A stretch of DNA of 64,000 nucleotides from the NCBI RefSeq assembly GCF_937863485.1, contig NZ_CALMFY010000215.1, positions 1 to 64,000 on the forward strand. The letters run 5' to 3'. A model generated the notes under the pieces. That model worked only from the letters and a program-made list of their open reading frames with translations, ran no database searches and was not told the origin of the DNA. The translations under genes and the position numbers were made by a program. The stretch's first letter is position 1. Each line of letters starts with the position of its first letter. Source of the stretch: an uncultured Nostoc sp. (lineage in GTDB: Bacteria; Cyanobacteriota; Cyanobacteriia; Cyanobacteriales; Nostocaceae). Positions 5,071 through 52,718 of this stretch are shown in pieces.

Positions 5071-5991
5071 ATGGATTTATTGCGATCGCTGCCACTTGGA
5101 CTTTATTTAGAACAACCCCAAACTTGGCTGCATAAAATCGATCCGCGAGTCAAGTTCGCCTGGTTGATGAGCTTTTTAACAAGCTATATTTTGGCTAACA
5201 ACTTTTGGCGGGTGCTGCTAGTGGTAGTATTAATTATTGCCACCTTGATTGCCAGGATTCCTCGACGAGTATGGCAGCAGCAAATGGGTTGGCTGTTAAT
5301 GCTATCGTTTTTTGTTTTAGCGATCGGAGCCATCAGTCCTGATGGAATGGGTGTAGATTATCAGCCACGCCTGCCAATTAATGAACAAATATTAAGCCAG
5401 CCATCAAACTCCAATAATATTGTTCCAGAGCAAGTAATTGAGAAAAAAGAATACAGCTACGTGCTATTTCACAAAGGCCCGGTGAAAGTAACTCGCTATT
5501 CCTTGGATTTGGCAGTACGCCTGAGTACACTTATATTTACCGTGATTTACAGCACCAACCTGTATCTGCTGACAACCGCACCAGAAGAAATCACATCTGG
5601 CATAGAAAGCCTAATGCAACCCCTGCGACGCCTGAAGTTGCCTGTTACAGAAATTGCTTTAACTTTAACCTTGTCCTTGCGCTTTATTCCCCTGGTATTA
5701 GAAGAAGTACAAAACTTATTTCGCTCCGTGATGACAAGGGCAATTAATTGGAAAAAGTTGGGATTGAAAGGAGGATTCAAAGTTTGGATGACAGTTGCAG
5801 AGAGACTGTTAGAAAATCTGCTCTTACGAGCCGATCAAATGGCGAATGCAATGATGGTGAGGGGTTTTACCAGTCCCAATGAGCATCGAGTCCAGTGGCA
5901 CGACTTACGATTAAAAGGGCGTGACTGGTTTGCTATTGCAACTTTAATTTTATTTTGGGGAATACGGCTAGCTATAGGAACTCAGGTCTAA
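5071..5991 (+). CDS. EcfT/CbiQ-family energy-coupling transmembrane protein
   Basis: This 306-residue integral membrane protein belongs to the CbiQ/EcfT family, the T component that links ATPases to a substrate-binding S component in ECF vitamin and metal transporters. It has an N-terminal run of membrane helices (about 30-105), a polar insert (about 110-150), a further membrane region, and the cytoplasmic coupling helices with the X-R-G type signature in NAMMVRGF near residue 265. No ATPase or S component is adjacent, so the substrate cannot be deduced. Many cyanobacteria carry such a stand-alone copy. The ATG follows repeat-derived sequence closely, and no clear ribosome-binding site is seen. 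Confidence 0.88.
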   Translation: MDLLRSLPLGLYLEQPQTWLHKIDPRVKFAWLMSFLTSYILANNFWRVLLVVVLIIATLIARIPRRVWQQQMGWLLMLSFFVLAIGAISPDGMGVDYQPRLPINEQILSQPSNSNNIVPEQVIEKKEYSYVLFHKGPVKVTRYSLDLAVRLSTLIFTVIYSTNLYLLTTAPEEITSGIESLMQPLRRLKLPVTEIALTLTLSLRFIPLVLEEVQNLFRSVMTRAINWKKLGLKGGFKVWMTVAERLLENLLLRADQMANAMMVRGFTSPNEHRVQWHDLRLKGRDWFAIATLILFWGIRLAIGTQV

Positions 5992-6115
5992 TTTTGCGCT
6001 GAGAAAATGGTAATAGGTAATAAATAATTGCATTTTGTCAGTGGTCAGTAGTCGTAGTTATTTGTACTCACTGCTGAAAACTGTTAACTAACTATTGACA
6101 ACGCTTCTAAACAGT

Positions 6116-7618
6116 ATGACCAAGCCTTGGTATTGGCGATCGCTACCCTTAGAAAAGCGCACAGGTTCGGAAGTTTTTGCTGCTCTTTTTCGCCCCACCG
6201 CCGCACCGGGAATTGCTACCCTACTAGAAAGTCCCTACCCAACGCCAATCGATCATCCTCAACTCAACCGATATTCTATCTGTGCAGGCGCTCCTCGCCT
6301 AGTAGATGGCACCCCACAGATGTGGACACCAGAAGTAGGAGAGGTTTTTCCCTTCCTAGAAAAGTTGTTACAGCAAGGAGTAGCGGGACATGAGGAGGAA
6401 TTTACCTCCCCTGCTTCCCATCTCCCCTTTACTGGCGGTTGGTTGGGTTGGCTAGGCTACGATGTGGCATGGGAAATTGAACAGTTACCCCGTAATAAAA
6501 TTGATCCCCTACCCTTTCCCATAGTTTTTTGGTACGAACCAGATTGTTTTGCCGTTTTGGATCATGCACAACAAATTCTTTGGCTAGCCGCCAGTGATGC
6601 AAGTGGACTTGATGAGTTAGAAAAGAAGTTAGCAAAGAAAGACGCGGGGAAAGAATTCTCCGTGTCTCCCTGTCCCCGCATCCCCGTGTCCTCTTCACTC
6701 CCCCTGTTTTTGACATCTCAAGCAGATTATGAAACAGCTGTCAACCAGGTGAAAAAATACATTCAAGCTGGAGACATCTTTCAGGCAAATCTTTCATTGC
6801 GATTTCAAGCGTCTACATTGGCTTCTGGTTGGGAAATTTACCAAGCCTTGCAAAAAATCAATCCTTCTCCTTTTGCCAGCTATTGGCAAACGCCTTGGGG
6901 GGAACTGATCAGTTGTTCGCCGGAACGGTTAGTAATGTTGCAAAATCGGCAAGCCCAAACTAGACCGATCGCCGGAACGCGATCGCGTGGTGTCACTCCA
7001 GAACAAGATATGCAACTGGCCCAAGATTTACTCAGCAACACTAAAGAACGTGCAGAACACATCATGCTAGTGGATTTGGAACGCAATGATTTAGGGCGAG
7101 TTTGTGAATGGGGAACGGTTACTGTTGACGAATTGCTGACAATTGAGCGATATAGCCATGTGATGCATCTTGTCAGCAACATCAAAGGTACTTTAAAAGG
7201 CGAATGCACTACCATTGATTTGATTCGTGCCACGTTCCCAGGTGGCACAATTACAGGTTGTCCGAAAGTCCGTTGCATGGAAATTATTGAAGAATTAGAA
7301 CCTGTGCGGCGCAGCTTGTTCTACGGTTCTTGTGGCTATTTAGATTGGCGTGGTCATTTAGATTTAAATATCTTAATCCGCACCCTGCTATTAGCTCCCG
7401 CGTTTCAACAAGGTGGGGGAGCAGGAGAAGTAGGGGAAGTAAATTCTTCCTCATCTCCCCACTCAAGACTCATCCCCCAGCACTCAGCACTCAACATTGT
7501 CTGGGGACAAGTTGGTGCAGGAATTGTCGCAGACAGCGATCCTGAGAAAGAATGGTATGAATCTCTGCACAAAGCTCAGGCACAACTGGCAGCGCTGAAA
7601 ATGCTAGATAATCAATAG
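6116..7618 (+). CDS. Chorismate-binding enzyme, anthranilate/aminodeoxychorismate synthase component I
   Basis: A TrpE/PabB-family enzyme that aminates chorismate, giving anthranilate (tryptophan) or 4-amino-4-deoxychorismate (folate). The N-terminal half has GGWLGWLGYD. The catalytic half has GDIFQANLS, SPERL, PIAGTRSRG, VDLERNDLGR, FPGGTITGCPK and GAGIVADS. PabB usually has PIKGT with a lysine, whereas PIAGT here is TrpE-like; the domain layout is closer to PabB, so the pathway stays open. The start is put at ATG 6116, since the upstream TTG would add only seven residues. Two low-complexity inserts (residues about 175-200 and 432-459) look like intergenic repeats absorbed in frame. Confidence 0.9.
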   Translation: MTKPWYWRSLPLEKRTGSEVFAALFRPTAAPGIATLLESPYPTPIDHPQLNRYSICAGAPRLVDGTPQMWTPEVGEVFPFLEKLLQQGVAGHEEEFTSPASHLPFTGGWLGWLGYDVAWEIEQLPRNKIDPLPFPIVFWYEPDCFAVLDHAQQILWLAASDASGLDELEKKLAKKDAGKEFSVSPCPRIPVSSSLPLFLTSQADYETAVNQVKKYIQAGDIFQANLSLRFQASTLASGWEIYQALQKINPSPFASYWQTPWGELISCSPERLVMLQNRQAQTRPIAGTRSRGVTPEQDMQLAQDLLSNTKERAEHIMLVDLERNDLGRVCEWGTVTVDELLTIERYSHVMHLVSNIKGTLKGECTTIDLIRATFPGGTITGCPKVRCMEIIEELEPVRRSLFYGSCGYLDWRGHLDLNILIRTLLLAPAFQQGGGAGEVGEVNSSSSPHSRLIPQHSALNIVWGQVGAGIVADSDPEKEWYESLHKAQAQLAALKMLDNQ

Positions 7619-49312: not shown

Positions 49313-49912
49313 GTGATTAAAAACGATATCTGGATTACTGAAATGGCTCAACAGGGTCTAATTTCGCCCTTTGAGCCAAGTTTAATCCGAAAAGTACAAA
49401 AAGATGAGTCTGTAGCGGTTCAACCTGTAATTAGCTACGGTTTGTCTTCTTATGGCTACGATATACGCCTTTCCTCGGCTGAGTTCCGCATTTTTCGTCA
49501 CATTCCCGGAACTGTAGTTGATCCCAAAAACTTTAATCCTCAGAATCTGGAGCCAACAGTACTGCATACAGATGCCAATGGCAGTTATTTTATTTTGCCT
49601 GCTCATTCCTATGGACTTGGGGTCGCTCTAGAAAAACTGGAGGTTCCTGAGAATATTACAGTAATTTGTATAGGTAAATCTACATATGCAAGGTGTGGTA
49701 TCATTGCAAATCTAACACCTGCTGAAGCTGCATGGCGGGGTCATCTAACTTTAGAATTTTCCAATTCTTCCAGCGCAGACTGTCGCATCTACGCTAATGA
49801 AGGCGTGGTGCAATTGCTATTTTTAGAAGGTGAACCTTGTGCTATCAGTTACGAAGCTCGTCAAGGTAAATATCAAGATCAACTAGAGATTGTAACGTTG
49901 GCTCGTGTTTAG
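49313..49912 (+). CDS. dcd: dCTP deaminase
   Basis: Dcd converts dCTP to dUTP, the main route to dUMP for thymidylate synthesis. The 199-residue product begins MIKNDIWITEMAQQGLISPF (GTG start, 49313) as the family does. It has ISYGLSSYGYDIRLS, YGLGVALEKLEVPENI, CIGKSTYARCG, and the catalytic Glu in RGHLTLEFSN. It lies 1.5 kb from thyX, the next enzyme but one of the pathway, on the opposite strand. Confidence 0.95.
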   Translation: MIKNDIWITEMAQQGLISPFEPSLIRKVQKDESVAVQPVISYGLSSYGYDIRLSSAEFRIFRHIPGTVVDPKNFNPQNLEPTVLHTDANGSYFILPAHSYGLGVALEKLEVPENITVICIGKSTYARCGIIANLTPAEAAWRGHLTLEFSNSSSADCRIYANEGVVQLLFLEGEPCAISYEARQGKYQDQLEIVTLARV

Positions 49913-49935: not shown

Positions 49936-50328
49936 TTATACAAAAATAGAACTTAAATCTATTTTGGCAAGTCCGAGTCGGTTTGCAATTTGGGCGTACT
50001 CATTAACTAAATAGTAGAGATCAATAGTGAGAAGATCGTTTGATACATAGTTTATTTCAGAAAGAGTAAAGCTTTTCTTAATCAAAGTTTTGGGAGGTAA
50101 ACCAGGAAGCGAGAAAAAAAGACTTAAATTGTAAAAAGATCCGTCTAAAGAGTCAGAAACAGAACCGAGAAAGGAATAAATGCTCTTAAGTCCAGTACCG
50201 CCCTCAAACTGATAATTATTAATTCCTAGCTGATTACAGCTCTTTAACAGATCAATAATTTCACTTTTGTTTGAAAGTAAAAACTTCTGCTCTACACTGA
50301 TATTCATAAAATTTTGCGATTTCATCAA
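49936..50328 (-). CDS. Hypothetical protein
   Basis: 130 residues with normal protein composition: FLLSNKSEIIDLLKSCNQLG, an aromatic middle (GSFYNLSLFFSLPGLPPK) and the helical end VNEYAQIANRLGLAKIDLSS. Three ATG codons at the 5' end make the exact start uncertain. It is convergent with dcd and stands just downstream of the cassette repeat at 50390. No family recognised. Confidence 0.5.
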   Translation of the reverse strand: MMKSQNFMNISVEQKFLLSNKSEIIDLLKSCNQLGINNYQFEGGTGLKSIYSFLGSVSDSLDGSFYNLSLFFSLPGLPPKTLIKKSFTLSEINYVSNDLLTIDLYYLVNEYAQIANRLGLAKIDLSSIFV

Positions 50329-50389: not shown

Positions 50390-50441
50390 TTAAGGTGCTA
50401 ATCTTGCCTTTCCTAGACGCTGCTTTTCATACCATTGTGCG
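50390..50441 (-). repeat. 52-bp direct repeat, duplicate of the thyX 3' end
   Basis: Identical in 51 of 52 positions to 51439-51490, the last 16 codons and stop of thyX. On the minus strand it would encode QWYEKQRLGKARLAP plus stop. It bounds the xisI-xisH block on the distal side. Confidence 0.92.
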
Positions 50442-50471
50442 TAGGCATAGACATCGCACAATCTCCAAAGC

Positions 50472-50804
50472 TCAATTGATCGCAAACTCTGTAAATTGGC
50501 GCATATAAGGAGAGTGAAACGCCAAAACGATATCTTCTTTTGGTATACCCAGTTCGAGGAGTTGTGTCGCAATGCCGACTTCGGTTCCATCATGCTGTAT
50601 CCAGATTTTACCATCTTTGATATCGAGATGTAGGCTGCATCCATGTGTTCGACGATTCCCGCGCCAGCCTGTATGTAGCAAGAGGTAGTGGTCACGTTCC
50701 GTATCTAGAATGGCTTGTGTTTCCATTTCCTCTGGTGATAAGCCTCTTTTTGCTCGTTCTAAAATTAACTGTTGAATGATTTGACGATACTGCTCTACAG
50801 CCAT
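50472..50804 (-). CDS. xisI: XisI family protein
   Basis: The 110-residue product matches XisI, one of two accessory factors needed with the XisF recombinase for excision of the fdxN element in Anabaena. Typical segments are YRQIIQQLILERAK, DTERDHYLLLHTGWRG, HLDIKDGKIWIQHDGTE and GIPKEDIVLAFH. It overlaps xisH by 10 bp. No XisF-type serine recombinase gene is in the window. XisH/XisI pairs are widespread in cyanobacteria away from any fdxN element, so the general role is not settled. Confidence 0.94.
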   Translation of the reverse strand: MAVEQYRQIIQQLILERAKRGLSPEEMETQAILDTERDHYLLLHTGWRGNRRTHGCSLHLDIKDGKIWIQHDGTEVGIATQLLELGIPKEDIVLAFHSPYMRQFTEFAIN

Positions 50805-51202
50805 TGGACAATAACCTCCTGTTTTTCATCGTAAACCAATAGCCGAATTTGAGTTCGTAAAATCACTGACCGGATAAAACGACGCTGAAAAAATGAGTTA
50901 TGAATTGATTCAGGCACTGCAAGATAAAGTTTGCGTTCCGGTTCCAATTCTTCGAGAGCAAATTGATAATTGATAAATTGTCCAAGAGCGGTGTGGAATT
51001 CTGATACACTTGATCGCCCAATAAAACTCTTAATTTCAACTGCAATTTTTTCGCCTGCTCGTTCGGCAGCTAACATTTCTGCTGCCAAATCTATTTCAAA
51101 ATCTACATCTCCAACGCTGATTTCGTAGGGATCGGCAGTAATTCTCCATCCTTCTTTCTCCAGAGCCATTCTAACTGCATCGTGAAAGCGGTCTTTAGCC
51201 AT
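50795..51202 (-). CDS. xisH: XisH family protein (PD-(D/E)XK-like)
   Basis: 135 residues: AKDRFHDAVRMALEKEGW, the central VDFEIDLAAE, then IAVEIKSFIG, FHTALGQFINYQFALEE and LYLAVPE. The Asp...Glu-x-Lys spacing (DFEID ... VEIKS) is that of PD-(D/E)XK nuclease-fold proteins, so a DNA-directed activity is possible. It is the first gene of the xisH-xisI unit. About 240 bp of non-coding or remnant sequence separate it from thyX. Confidence 0.94.
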   Translation of the reverse strand: MAKDRFHDAVRMALEKEGWRITADPYEISVGDVDFEIDLAAEMLAAERAGEKIAVEIKSFIGRSSVSEFHTALGQFINYQFALEELEPERKLYLAVPESIHNSFFQRRFIRSVILRTQIRLLVYDEKQEVIVQWL

Positions 51203-51438
51203 TCAGCTTTTTCTGAAAATTTATTAGGACACTTGACTGGTATCTCAATTTTATCCTCAGTCATTGGATCGCTCCTCACTCCTGCTACTGTTCCACTTCT
51301 GTCACTGCCAAACCCGTTTTCGGAGGGATTGTTTCCTTATCTAATATATTCAGCAGCGATCGCCCGAAATCAAACCCAAATTTCGGAACGCCTAAACACG
51401 AGGGGATAACAGTATAAAAAGGCTTATAAGCCAATATT
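51203..51438. other. Remnant sequence between xisH and thyX
   Basis: On the minus strand a short frame starts MTEDKIEIPVKCPNKFSEKA at about 51264 and runs out of frame into xisH. Before it another frame reads KFGFDFGRSLLNILDKETIP. They look like broken coding pieces carried within the cassette. No intact gene is present. Confidence 0.35.
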
Positions 51439-51490
51439 TTAAGGTGCTAATCTTGCCTTACCTAGACGCTGCTTTTCATACCATTGTGCG
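51439..51490 (-). repeat. 52-bp direct repeat at the thyX 3' end
   Basis: This copy is part of thyX (stop codon plus the last 16 codons). The partner lies at 50390-50441 with a single mismatch (51460 A versus 50411 T). The homology stops sharply at 51490/51491. Confidence 0.92.
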
Positions 51491-52161
51491 ATCGCAGGTG
51501 CCCAATCTTCAAAATGAGGCCACATCATTTCACATAACTTTTGAATTTCAAGTTGAGCATCTTTCTTATTTCTCAGGTCACAAAAATGCAAGAAAGACCT
51601 TAAATTGAAACTAACTACAAAATGCTGGCGATAATCAAAAGGTACTTTACCCCTTGCATGTTCTTCAGACATTCCAGCCTCAAAATCAGCTTTATATCGT
51701 TTAGCTGCTTCTAGACACCATTGCAAATCTGCTGTTCGTGCTAAGAGTGAATAGTGGTACTTTTTGCCTTGTCTATCAGTGTAATAACCAACGGGACGCA
51801 GGTAAAAAACATCTTCTATGTCTTTCTTACCTTCTACAACATCGGTAAATTGGTTGCCTGTATATCTAAAAGACTGGACATCAAATGATACGCCCACACG
51901 ATGAGTACGCGCCTGCTGCATCACACTGTGGGGAAAGTAGCCACAGTTGAAAACAATTTGGGGATGCTCTAGAGGCCCATAGTGTCCCCTCTCACCGGCT
52001 AAAAGTCGCTTAACAATAACTTCGCCGCTTTGTGACTCCGAGGGCCAAGAGTCACGCTCATCAAACACGAACCCATCAGTATAGTCCTGGTGCATCGCGG
52101 CATAAATCACCTGCTGCGGGTTTGGTGTTTTGGCAATAACCTCTACTCGAAATCGATGCAT
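51439..52161 (-). CDS. thyX: Flavin-dependent thymidylate synthase
   Basis: ThyX makes dTMP from dUMP with FAD, NADPH and methylene-tetrahydrofolate. The 240-residue product has the ThyX motif in ARTHRVGVSFDVQSFRYTG (R-x-H-R-x(3)-S), VKRLLAGERGHYGPLEHPQI, and FNLRSFLHFCDLR with the flavin-binding region. It is full length and ends AQWYEKQRLGKARLAP. Its last 52 bp are repeated 1,049 bp downstream, beyond xisH-xisI. dcd nearby supplies the same pathway. Confidence 0.96.
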   Translation of the reverse strand: MHRFRVEVIAKTPNPQQVIYAAMHQDYTDGFVFDERDSWPSESQSGEVIVKRLLAGERGHYGPLEHPQIVFNCGYFPHSVMQQARTHRVGVSFDVQSFRYTGNQFTDVVEGKKDIEDVFYLRPVGYYTDRQGKKYHYSLLARTADLQWCLEAAKRYKADFEAGMSEEHARGKVPFDYRQHFVVSFNLRSFLHFCDLRNKKDAQLEIQKLCEMMWPHFEDWAPAIAQWYEKQRLGKARLAP

Positions 52162-52357: not shown

Positions 52358-52573
52358 ATGCGTACAAACACTGCTATAATTGACGACCAAGGCAAACTGA
52401 ACAACTTTGCGATCGAGCCAAGGGTTTATATAGATGAGCAAGGCGATCGCACAGGCTTCACTCCTTTTGCAGAACTGCTCAACGGTCGTTTAGCAATGAT
52501 TGGTTTTGTCTCTCTAATAGCATTAGAAGTATTCACAGGACACGGTATCGTTGGTGTTTTGACAAGCCTGTAA
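52358..52573 (+). CDS. High-light-inducible (HLIP/CAB-ELIP) protein
   Basis: A 71-residue thylakoid protein with one membrane helix carrying the chlorophyll-binding motif [20 protein letters not shown]. Members bind chlorophyll and carotenoid and protect photosystem assembly and nascent chlorophyll proteins. The N-terminal part (1-35) is polar and stromal. It stands alone, between thyX (divergent) and a strong palindromic terminator. The HLR1-like site upstream suggests light-stress control. Confidence 0.93.
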
Positions 52574-52602
52574 AAACTGATTCCTGTAATATAACTCTCA
52601 AC

Positions 52603-52642
52603 ATAAATTAAGAGACGGTAAATTTACCGTCTCTTAATTTAT
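52603..52642. terminator. Perfect 40-bp palindrome after the hli gene
   Basis: Each 20-base half is the exact reverse complement of the other, with AAATTAAGAGACGGTAAA in the left arm. It lies 30 bp after the hli stop and can fold into a long stem with T-rich flanks on either strand, so it can serve as a bidirectional terminator. The perfect symmetry is unusual. Confidence 0.75.
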
Positions 52643-52718
52643 GGAAAACTTAGTGGTAGAGTAAAATATACTGATAGCAAAAGCCGTTAGTTATCAGCGT
52701 AAAGTTATCAGGTAAATT

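What the first reader, a model, noticed from the sequence alone, without database searches (positions are those of the whole stretch)
50390..51490. xisH-xisI cassette flanked by 52-bp direct repeats copied from the thyX 3' end
Sequence: 50390-50441 and 51439-51490 are identical in 51 of 52 positions. The second is the true 3' end of thyX (16 codons plus stop), and the 997 bp between the two hold xisH, xisI and broken coding pieces. Inference: a small cassette entered at the end of thyX and regenerated or duplicated that end, as integrative elements do at tRNA or gene ends. This gives XisHI a possible mobility context independent of the fdxN element. Alternatively the duplicate came with a segmental duplication.
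Basis: partly seen in the sequence, partly recalled or inferred. Interest (0 to 1): 0.8.

Follow-up and report, generated by a model that had tools for sequence, protein, structure and literature searches.

The report
Nuclease cassette that replaces gene ends
In this Nostoc-like cyanobacterium a small two-gene cassette (xisH-xisI) sits behind the gene thyX between two copies of the end of thyX, and related genomes suggest that such cassettes insert next to conserved genes together with a substitute gene end, so that the gene survives while its old end is pushed aside and decays.

Summary
In detail: 50390-50441 and 51439-51490 agree at 51 of 52 bases, with intact xisH and xisI in the 997 bp between. 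It is not a one-off. In the genus, second thyX tails lie in the thyX-dcd gap in 9 of 41 loci, and three outgroup loci have an empty 20-23 bp gap. Of 113 distinct xisHI units, 23 (about ten loci, not independent) are flanked by strong direct repeats, mostly copies of a neighbouring gene (control 1 of 400). The clearest locus is shikimate kinase (aroK). Empty: aroK, about 15 bp, Uma2. Filled: aroK, xisHI, a second copy of the aroK end, about 15 bp, the same Uma2. At five cassette-linked positions near the end of aroK the distal copies carry mostly the empty-site alleles, the working copy others. So the distal copy looks like the old end and the working end like the newcomer; a simple staggered-cut duplication fits poorly. 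I read xisHI as a passenger cassette that inserts with a replacement gene end, at two genes joined at HIP1 (GCGATCGC), independent of the fdxN element. How it moves is unproven, and the window's own locus is more tangled. Closest known kind: insertion with long target duplication.

The parts
51439..52161 (-). thyX (thymidylate synthase ThyX), working copy
   Evidence: Pfam Thy1 E 1.3e-41; full-length copies of 93-98% identity in 39 other genus genomes, one of them with one stop inside
51439..51495 (-). proximal copy (T) of the thyX 3' end, from HIP1 (51488-51495) to the stop
51356..51380 (-). boundary motif TTTGGGTWTGATTTAGAGCGATCGC (2 mismatches); in relatives it lies at the right end of xisHI-type cassettes
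   Evidence: 17 of 18 genus-wide hits (up to 2 mismatches) lie in thyX loci, the other in G038 beside sequence that also flanks the window-type xisHI
50795..51202 (-). xisH, nuclease-family protein; D38, E56, K58 kept in 99-100% of 112 homologues
   Evidence: Pfam XisH; PDB 2inb, 2okf
50472..50804 (-). xisI, partner gene of xisH
   Evidence: Pfam XisI; PDB 2nlv, 3d7q, 2nwv, 2nvm
50442..50452 (-). 11-nt stretch GTCTATGCCTA that seems to split the HIP1 octamer (GCGAT 50453-50457, CGC 50439-50441) of the distal copy
   Evidence: inference from comparison
50390..50441 (-). distal copy (D) of the thyX 3' end, 51 of 52 identical
49936..50328 (-). 130-codon frame of unknown family behind the distal copy; in L058 its last 108 residues (88% identical) follow a truncated Rpn-type gene before dcd
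   Evidence: no Pfam hit
49313..49912 (+). dcd (dCTP deaminase-like), the convergent neighbour that marks the empty site in outgroups
   Evidence: Pfam DCD; 20-23 bp from thyX in L196, L201, L202

Best explanation
xisHI is a small passenger cassette that enters next to conserved genes together with a replacement for the gene end it lands on. Incoming DNA carries [gene end + xisHI]. It recombines with the resident gene end, so the gene now finishes in the cassette-borne end (T), xisHI follows, and the old end (D) is pushed downstream, where it keeps its original neighbour and decays. At thyX and aroK the far junction lies at the HIP1 octamer in the gene. The product is what one crossover between the gene end and a circle carrying [gene end + xisHI] would give, or what homology on one side plus joining at HIP1 on the other would give. 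Shown by sequence: empty and filled sites, the neighbour behind D, allele types of T and D at aroK, recurrence at several genes, an intact conserved nuclease-type XisH. Inferred: the circle or linear intermediate, that XisH takes part, and that the same process made the window's locus.
For: aroK (30 loci examined). Empty: full Uma2 on the other strand 11-15 bp behind aroK and one tail only, 8 loci, including the window's own genome (L371). Second tail: 13 loci; in 10 of these 13 the Uma2 frame begins 15-16 bp behind the copy, and in L379 the copy is followed by the flank that follows the single aroK end in L390. In L381 the copy of the last 146 bp starts directly after the xisI stop. Genus-wide, 21 of 53 genomes have a second partial aroK copy, 19 of them starting at the same base, at HIP1 (one 28-nt match in G010 not counted). 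Columns whose allele frequency differs by more than 0.5 between filled and empty aroK: 7 in the last 31 nt, 0 in the other 515 (16 against 13 loci). At five of them D shows the empty-site allele in 12/12, 8/11, 10/11, 10/11 and 10/10. thyX: D copies in 9 of 41 loci, starting at HIP1 or its remains, behind different contents; D 9-20 bp from dcd in L035, L046, L064, L140. chlH end and a methyltransferase start: second copies in 6 and 8 of 53 genomes. Flank test: 23 of 113 units, 14 with the right copy within 110 nt of the xisI stop; control 1 and 0 of 400; GNAT 0 of 28.
Against: Units and genomes are not independent: about ten loci, and at aroK one old event with later loss or exchange may explain most of the pattern (6 changes of state among 23 labelled rows of a weakly supported tree). 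At a sixth aroK column (-1) D shows the allele of the filled loci in 8 of 8 readable copies; the seventh column was not read in D. Of the 13 loci with D, 12 have the foreign end type and L364 the empty type; the three loci with only a cassette-like left spacer (L374, L378, L382) all have the empty type. 90 of 113 xisHI units show no such repeat, among the thyX loci 7 with a related xisH or xisI have no second tail. PIN loci gave 4 of 25 flanking repeats (184-255 nt) and Uma2 loci 2 of 29, against 4 of 28 for XisH loci in the same test, so the habit is not confined to xisHI. Looser controls were 8 of 500 and 7 of 428. HIP1 does not start the copies at chlH, the methyltransferase gene or the PIN-gene locus. 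L048 has a tail copy without the window's xisHI.
Confidence: 0.7

Rival explanations
1. Target-site duplication: a nuclease (perhaps XisH) makes two nicks 50-230 bp apart, xisHI is inserted and gap filling copies the target on both sides, as for a transposon but with a very long duplication.
For: Direct repeats of about 50-230 bp flank xisHI at several genes, host genes stay intact, XisH keeps D38, E56 and K58 in 99-100% of 112 homologues. At the last base of aroK both copies share one allele.
Against: At five other aroK columns the two copies differ in allele type, the working one cassette-linked, the distal one like the empty sites; a gap-fill duplication would make both native. Lengths vary widely and two genes share the HIP1 start.
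Confidence: 0.12
2. Segmental or tandem duplication by unequal crossing-over between HIP1 sites (one at the cassette end, one in the gene), followed by decay of the second unit; no horizontal arrival is needed.
For: HIP1 lies at the junction in thyX and aroK loci; motifs ending in HIP1 occur at the right end of xisHI units and near a non-thyX gene in G038.
Against: In 10 of 13 aroK loci the sequence behind D is the Uma2 neighbour of empty genomes, not a second xisHI; T and D differ in allele type. Behind the thyX D copies of L047, L048, L053 and L056 stand frames similar to dCTP deaminase, not a second copy of the Rpn-type gene that follows T in L047 and L053. Other junctions do not start at HIP1.
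Confidence: 0.1
3. Site-specific integration by a recombinase acting in trans (XisF-, XisA- or XisC-like), the gene end being the attachment site and XisHI the excision helpers.
For: Gene-end regeneration is typical of integrases (recalled); XisH and XisI are required for fdxN excision with XisF (passages read of PMC4853749 and PMC4874684); the thyX copies start at one base behind different contents.
Against: No common core: copies start and end differently at different genes, and HIP1 starts them only at thyX and aroK (right copy only at G000:C28). No integrase in the ORFs scanned; transposases of IS type in L045 and L056. I did not search these genomes for xisF.
Confidence: 0.1
4. Homing: XisH cuts cassette-free gene ends and repair copies the cassette with a recoded, resistant end.
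For: Nuclease-type gene; cassette-linked alleles confined to the last 31 nt of aroK; another nuclease family, Rpn (RpnA type), in the gap behind thyX in 20 of 41 loci.
Against: Distal copies in genomes that hold xisHI keep mostly empty-site alleles, so native-type sequence sits uncut in the same chromosome, if the target lies there; nothing shows cutting.
Confidence: 0.08

Closest known systems
Insertion with long target duplication, described for restriction-modification genes of Helicobacter pylori (Nobusato et al. 2000; not read, known here only through passages of PMC1643837, PMC3031569 and PMC4978471)
   Same: A small gene unit with a nuclease lies between long, variable direct repeats of the target, against an empty site in a related strain.
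   Different: Here the unit is xisHI in cyanobacteria, the repeats are mostly gene ends, the working end is of foreign allele type at aroK, and two genes join at HIP1.
Displacement of type VI effector-immunity modules, proposed to occur by homology-facilitated illegitimate recombination in Vibrio (PMC5361080, passages read)
   Same: A new module arrives anchored in conserved upstream sequence and shifts the old 3' part downstream, where it stays as an orphan or remnant.
   Different: There immunity genes or effector ends are displaced; here it is a decaying end of a housekeeping gene, and the added genes are unrelated to that gene.
XisH and XisI of the Anabaena fdxN element
   Same: Same Pfam families; solved homologues.
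   Different: The window cassette is xisH and xisI alone (about 0.73 kb) between gene-end copies; no xisF among its frames.
Integrative elements that regenerate a tRNA or gene 3' end (recalled)
   Same: Gene end restored by incoming DNA, old end left at the far side.
   Different: No integrase in the cassette, no constant core seen, very small.

Membership tests
XisH/XisI family | Match over the curated cut-off of PF08814 and PF08869 | tested here: met
   184.1 and 153.7 bits against a cut-off of 25
XisH/XisI family | PD-(D/E)XK-type catalytic residues conserved in XisH | tested here: met
   D38, E56, K58 in 99-100% of 112 rows; that these are the catalytic residues is recalled, not tested
XisH/XisI family | Acts on excision of an element with XisF | not testable with these tools
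   needs bench work; xisF was not searched for
Insertion with long target duplication | Empty site in relatives with a single copy of the target | tested here: met
   aroK, 8 loci such as L362, L370, L371; thyX outgroups L196, L201, L202
Insertion with long target duplication | Both copies derive from the recipient's own target | tested here: not met
   aroK only: five columns say that the working copy is cassette-linked and the distal copy native, one column (-1) does not; not testable for the window's thyX. Whether the known cases meet this feature I did not see
Integrase-type integrative element | Recombinase gene in the element | tested here: not met
   Between the window repeats only xisH and xisI gave convincing Pfam hits; in relatives only part of the ORFs was scanned, giving IS-type transposases in L045 and L056 and no integrase
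Integrase-type integrative element | Constant attachment core at all sites | tested here: not met
   Copies start at HIP1 at thyX and aroK, not at chlH, the methyltransferase gene and the PIN locus
Homing endonuclease cassette | Native target absent from cells that carry the cassette | tested here: inconclusive
   Distal aroK copies keep mostly empty-site alleles in cassette-bearing genomes, but the target is unknown

The most novel reading that the evidence does not exclude
XisHI, and with it other nuclease families expanded in cyanobacteria (Rpn, Uma2), are the engines of minimal integrase-free mobile cassettes: the nuclease stimulates recombination at the end of a core gene, and each cassette pays for its insertion by carrying a replacement gene end. 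This would explain why such families fill Nostoc genomes (2-22 XisH matches per genome; at least 42 Uma2 matches in each of 53 genomes, the scoring being capped at about 53 candidates) and why XisHI turned up as helpers of fdxN excision.
Probability: 0.25. Interest if true: 0.85.

Novelty: new variant of a known kind. Interest (0 to 1): 0.67.

Why it matters
XisH and XisI are known for one act, the excision of the fdxN element, yet all 53 genus genomes searched carry XisH matches. A repeatable signature, an old gene end stranded beyond the cassette, shows that xisHI units move and tells old from new ends, so gains, losses and donors can be read from sequence. It also makes the role of XisHI in recombination testable at natural filled and empty sites of Nostoc strains. 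If the pattern extends to Rpn and Uma2, it would explain part of the large nuclease families of cyanobacteria.

Tried and rejected
An extended alignment of the window's distal copy upstream of HIP1 to thyX (TTTGRAGATTG) was dropped: similar sequence lies beside a remnant of the window-type xisHI at G038, away from thyX, so it belongs to the cassette. The repeats at +10..+38 in L033, L051 and L059 were read as an xisI 3' remnant and not counted as thyX tails. HIP1 as the general junction fails outside thyX, aroK and, by the right copy only, G000:C28. In a draft I took the frames behind the thyX D copies, and the window's 49936-50328, for Rpn-type genes because of a cluster label; one search shows that label to be mixed: the frames are dCTP-deaminase-like in L047, L048, L053 and L056 and of unknown family in the window. 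This took one support from the tandem-duplication rival; I lowered it from 0.12 to 0.10. I raised the staggered-cut rival from 0.10 to 0.12 and lowered the best explanation from 0.72 to 0.70 and the novel case from 0.27 to 0.25 because of the -1 column. The second Rpn-like family (RpnB, a hit in 12 of 41 thyX loci) has only a weak hit to TIGR01784 (18.8 bits, cut-off 52.1) and no Pfam hit. One search was a first version of the flank test on 49 units, superseded. The mismatched-pair control (8 of 500) may include orthologous pairs and its random segments (7 of 428) include thyX loci; the 400 segments are overlapping draws from 43 genomes. The PIN hits were not followed up. L372 was out of register by one base and was left out. 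L070 (thyX with an insert) was left out of the tree, and nine loci without dcd in reach were left out of the D and xisHI counts there (11 and 9 changes; no shuffles run). No search listing showed a paper on xisHI between gene-end repeats, but most subscription papers are missing, and Hwang et al. 2014 and PMC2853133 are not held.

Full report
1. What is in the window. The two 52-base repeats are as described: 51 of 52 identical, 997 bp between them, one of them the last 52 nt of thyX. xisH and xisI in the gap are intact and match their Pfam families strongly, with solved homologues. Against the homologous pair behind thyX in another genus (G084) dN/dS is about 0.10 and 0.045, so both proteins seem kept by selection. 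Behind the distal copy lies a 130-codon frame of unknown family (no Pfam hit; in L058 its last 108 residues follow a truncated Rpn-type gene) and then dcd. The HIP1+tail pattern (up to 3 mismatches) was found in 43 of 53 genomes; in 6 of them it occurs a second time, within 3 kb of thyX and on the same strand, and it was found nowhere else. In relatives the duplicated stretch begins at the HIP1 octamer 57 nt before the thyX stop; in the window's distal copy that octamer seems split by 11 nt. A passage of PMC4390886 mentions a small repeat module that inserts into HIP1; that the 11 nt are such a module is a guess.

2. The thyX-dcd gap in relatives. Of 53 genus genomes 44 have a thyX match. I fetched 40 loci with up to 10 kb behind thyX and compared them with the window, 41 in all. 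Ten of 41 have xisH and/or xisI homologues there; nine of these are of a type 52-60% identical in protein, the tenth is the window. The window's type stands at thyX also in G084 and, with a decayed xisH, in G080, both of other genera. An Rpn-type gene (RpnA; Pfam DUF2887 and NCBIfam TIGR01784) gives a hit in 20 of 41 loci and a weakly Rpn-like one (RpnB) in 12. Nine of 41 have a second thyX tail in the gap, beginning at HIP1 or its remains and in thyX orientation; weaker, decayed tails were seen by eye in L064, L140 and L193. In seven of the nine the tail is directly preceded by a conserved motif ending in HIP1, in L049 by a weak form, in the window not. Genus-wide that motif (up to 2 mismatches) has 18 hits in 15 of 53 genomes, 17 of them at thyX; the 18th, in G038, lies next to sequence that also flanks the window-type xisHI, so I read the motif as the right end of an xisHI cassette.

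3. Empty sites. In three outgroup loci thyX and dcd converge with 20-23 bp between them and no cassette (L196 Tolypothrix sp. FACHB-123, L201 Calothrix membranacea FACHB-236, L202 Nostoc linckia FACHB-104); others have 59-134 bp, some more. In L035, L046, L064 and L140 the decayed distal tail sits about 9-20 bp from dcd, as the real thyX end does in those outgroups. The distal copy there is in the place of the original end.

4. The pattern recurs at other xisHI. I compared 900 nt left of xisH with 1300 nt right of the xisI stop in 117 units (25 with a score of 25 or more); without duplicates 23 of 113, 14 of them with the right copy starting within 110 nt of the xisI stop, against 1 and 0 of 400 random segments upstream of thyX. 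The hits fall into about ten loci, so they are not independent. Among them: the end of aroK, the 3' end of a CobN/magnesium-chelatase gene (called chlH here), the 5' end of a methyltransferase gene, the upstream region of a small gene before a PIN gene, Uma2 genes and thyX; for three loci (G133, G000:C28, L250/L289) the repeat is not clearly a piece of a neighbouring gene. Domain-centred controls gave 4 of 28 for XisH, 2 of 29 for Uma2, 4 of 25 for PIN (copies of 184-255 nt) and 0 of 28 for GNAT, so xisHI is not the only kind of unit with such flanks.

5. aroK is the clearest case. Of 30 aroK loci eight have a full Uma2 on the other strand 11-15 bp behind aroK and one tail only, including the window's own genome. 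Thirteen have a second tail; in ten of these a Uma2 frame begins 15-16 bp behind it. In L381 the order is aroK, about 21 bp, xisH, xisI, directly the last 146 bp of aroK from HIP1 to the stop, 15 bp, Uma2. L367 keeps only a scar of the copy. L379 has the flank of another empty form (L390) behind its copy. Genus-wide 21 of 53 genomes have a second partial copy, 19 of them starting at the same base. Filled and empty aroK genes do not differ consistently over 515 nt but do in the last 31 nt (7 columns with an allele-frequency difference above 0.5; 13 loci with D and 3 with a cassette-like spacer against 13 empty). At five of these the distal copies carry the empty-site allele (12/12, 8/11, 10/11, 10/11, 10/10); at a sixth, the last base of the stop codon, they carry the filled allele in 8 of 8. 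Of the 13 loci with D, 12 have the foreign end type in the working gene and L364 does not; the three with only the spacer have the empty type. On balance the distal copy is the resident's old end and the working end came with the cassette.

6. chlH and the methyltransferase gene. A second chlH end occurs in 6 of 53 genomes on the same contig within 7 kb; in G012 behind xisHI, in G037 behind Uma2, and in G030 the coordinates give chlH, xisH, chlH end, Uma2. Several loci with xisHI behind chlH have no second end. A second methyltransferase start occurs in 8 of 53 genomes, upstream of xisH or its remains where I had the locus; the right copy belongs to the intact gene and the left copy ends 0-11 nt before the xisH start. 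In the window's own genome a decayed xisI lies next to this gene (G000:C75).

7. Mechanism. The simplest process that gives this is recombination of incoming DNA carrying [gene end + xisHI] with the resident gene end: a crossover inside the tail makes the working end part resident, part incoming, and leaves the old end beyond the cassette. Whether the DNA is a circle (one crossover) or a linear fragment joined at HIP1 on its far side cannot be told; both are inference. A staggered-cut duplication is disfavoured by five of the six columns read in the allele test, a homing scheme is not supported, and an integrase is disfavoured by the missing common core and its absence from the ORFs scanned. 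XisH keeps its presumed catalytic residues in 112 homologues, which fits but does not show a part in the movement.

8. The window itself. The window has the boundary motif first, then xisHI, then the tail. In G080 the motif also precedes the window-type xisHI. So the window's gap probably holds the remains of at least two events, and which of them made the repeat is open. On the thyX-body tree the window sits, weakly supported, among genomes whose thyX ends CCATAA, while both its copies end CCTTAA; the allele test made at aroK cannot be made here.

9. Known and new. Restriction-modification genes inserted with long target duplications are reported for H. pylori (passages in PMC1643837, PMC3031569, PMC4978471), and modules that push old gene parts downstream for Vibrio (passages in PMC5361080). 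That XisH is likely an endonuclease and XisI a directionality factor is cited in a passage of PMC4853749. I found no paper on xisHI cassettes between gene-end copies (listings). I rate it a new variant of a known kind.

Noticed in passing
G042:C11:11068-13146, G014:C209:39710-41788, G024:C61:47665-49245 (L070, L139, L140): thyX matches are split near residue 96-101 by about 0.8-1.3 kb inside one long open frame (539-705 aa), which looks like an intein.
   Followed up: no
L141 (G084) 5699-7444 and L205: dcd is split at residue 128 with about 1.1 kb between the parts in L141; L205 also shows two dcd pieces.
   Followed up: no
L053 +2517..+3749 behind thyX, and L198: Two adjacent dcd copies.
   Followed up: no
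L059, L031, L039, L070 behind thyX: A 497-498-aa frame, in L059 hitting Thymidylat_synt and PterinBD-DUF4346, with a deaminase-type frame, stands behind thyX, i.e. apparently a second thymidylate synthase.
   Followed up: partly
L047, L048, L053, L056 behind the distal thyX copy: A dCTP-deaminase-like frame (30-36% identical to the L059 frame that hits Pfam DCD) stands between the copy and dcd.
   Followed up: partly
G000:C28 (L095/L102): Another xisHI of the window's genome is flanked by a 90-bp repeat (68 of 90), the right copy starting with HIP1 and lying before a gene that looks like Uma2.
   Followed up: partly
L432, L437, L438, L441: Four of 25 PIN loci have flanking direct repeats of 184-255 nt.
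   Followed up: no
window 52602-52643: Overlapping 23-nt arms of a perfect palindrome behind the small gene 52358-52573, perhaps a terminator.
   Followed up: no
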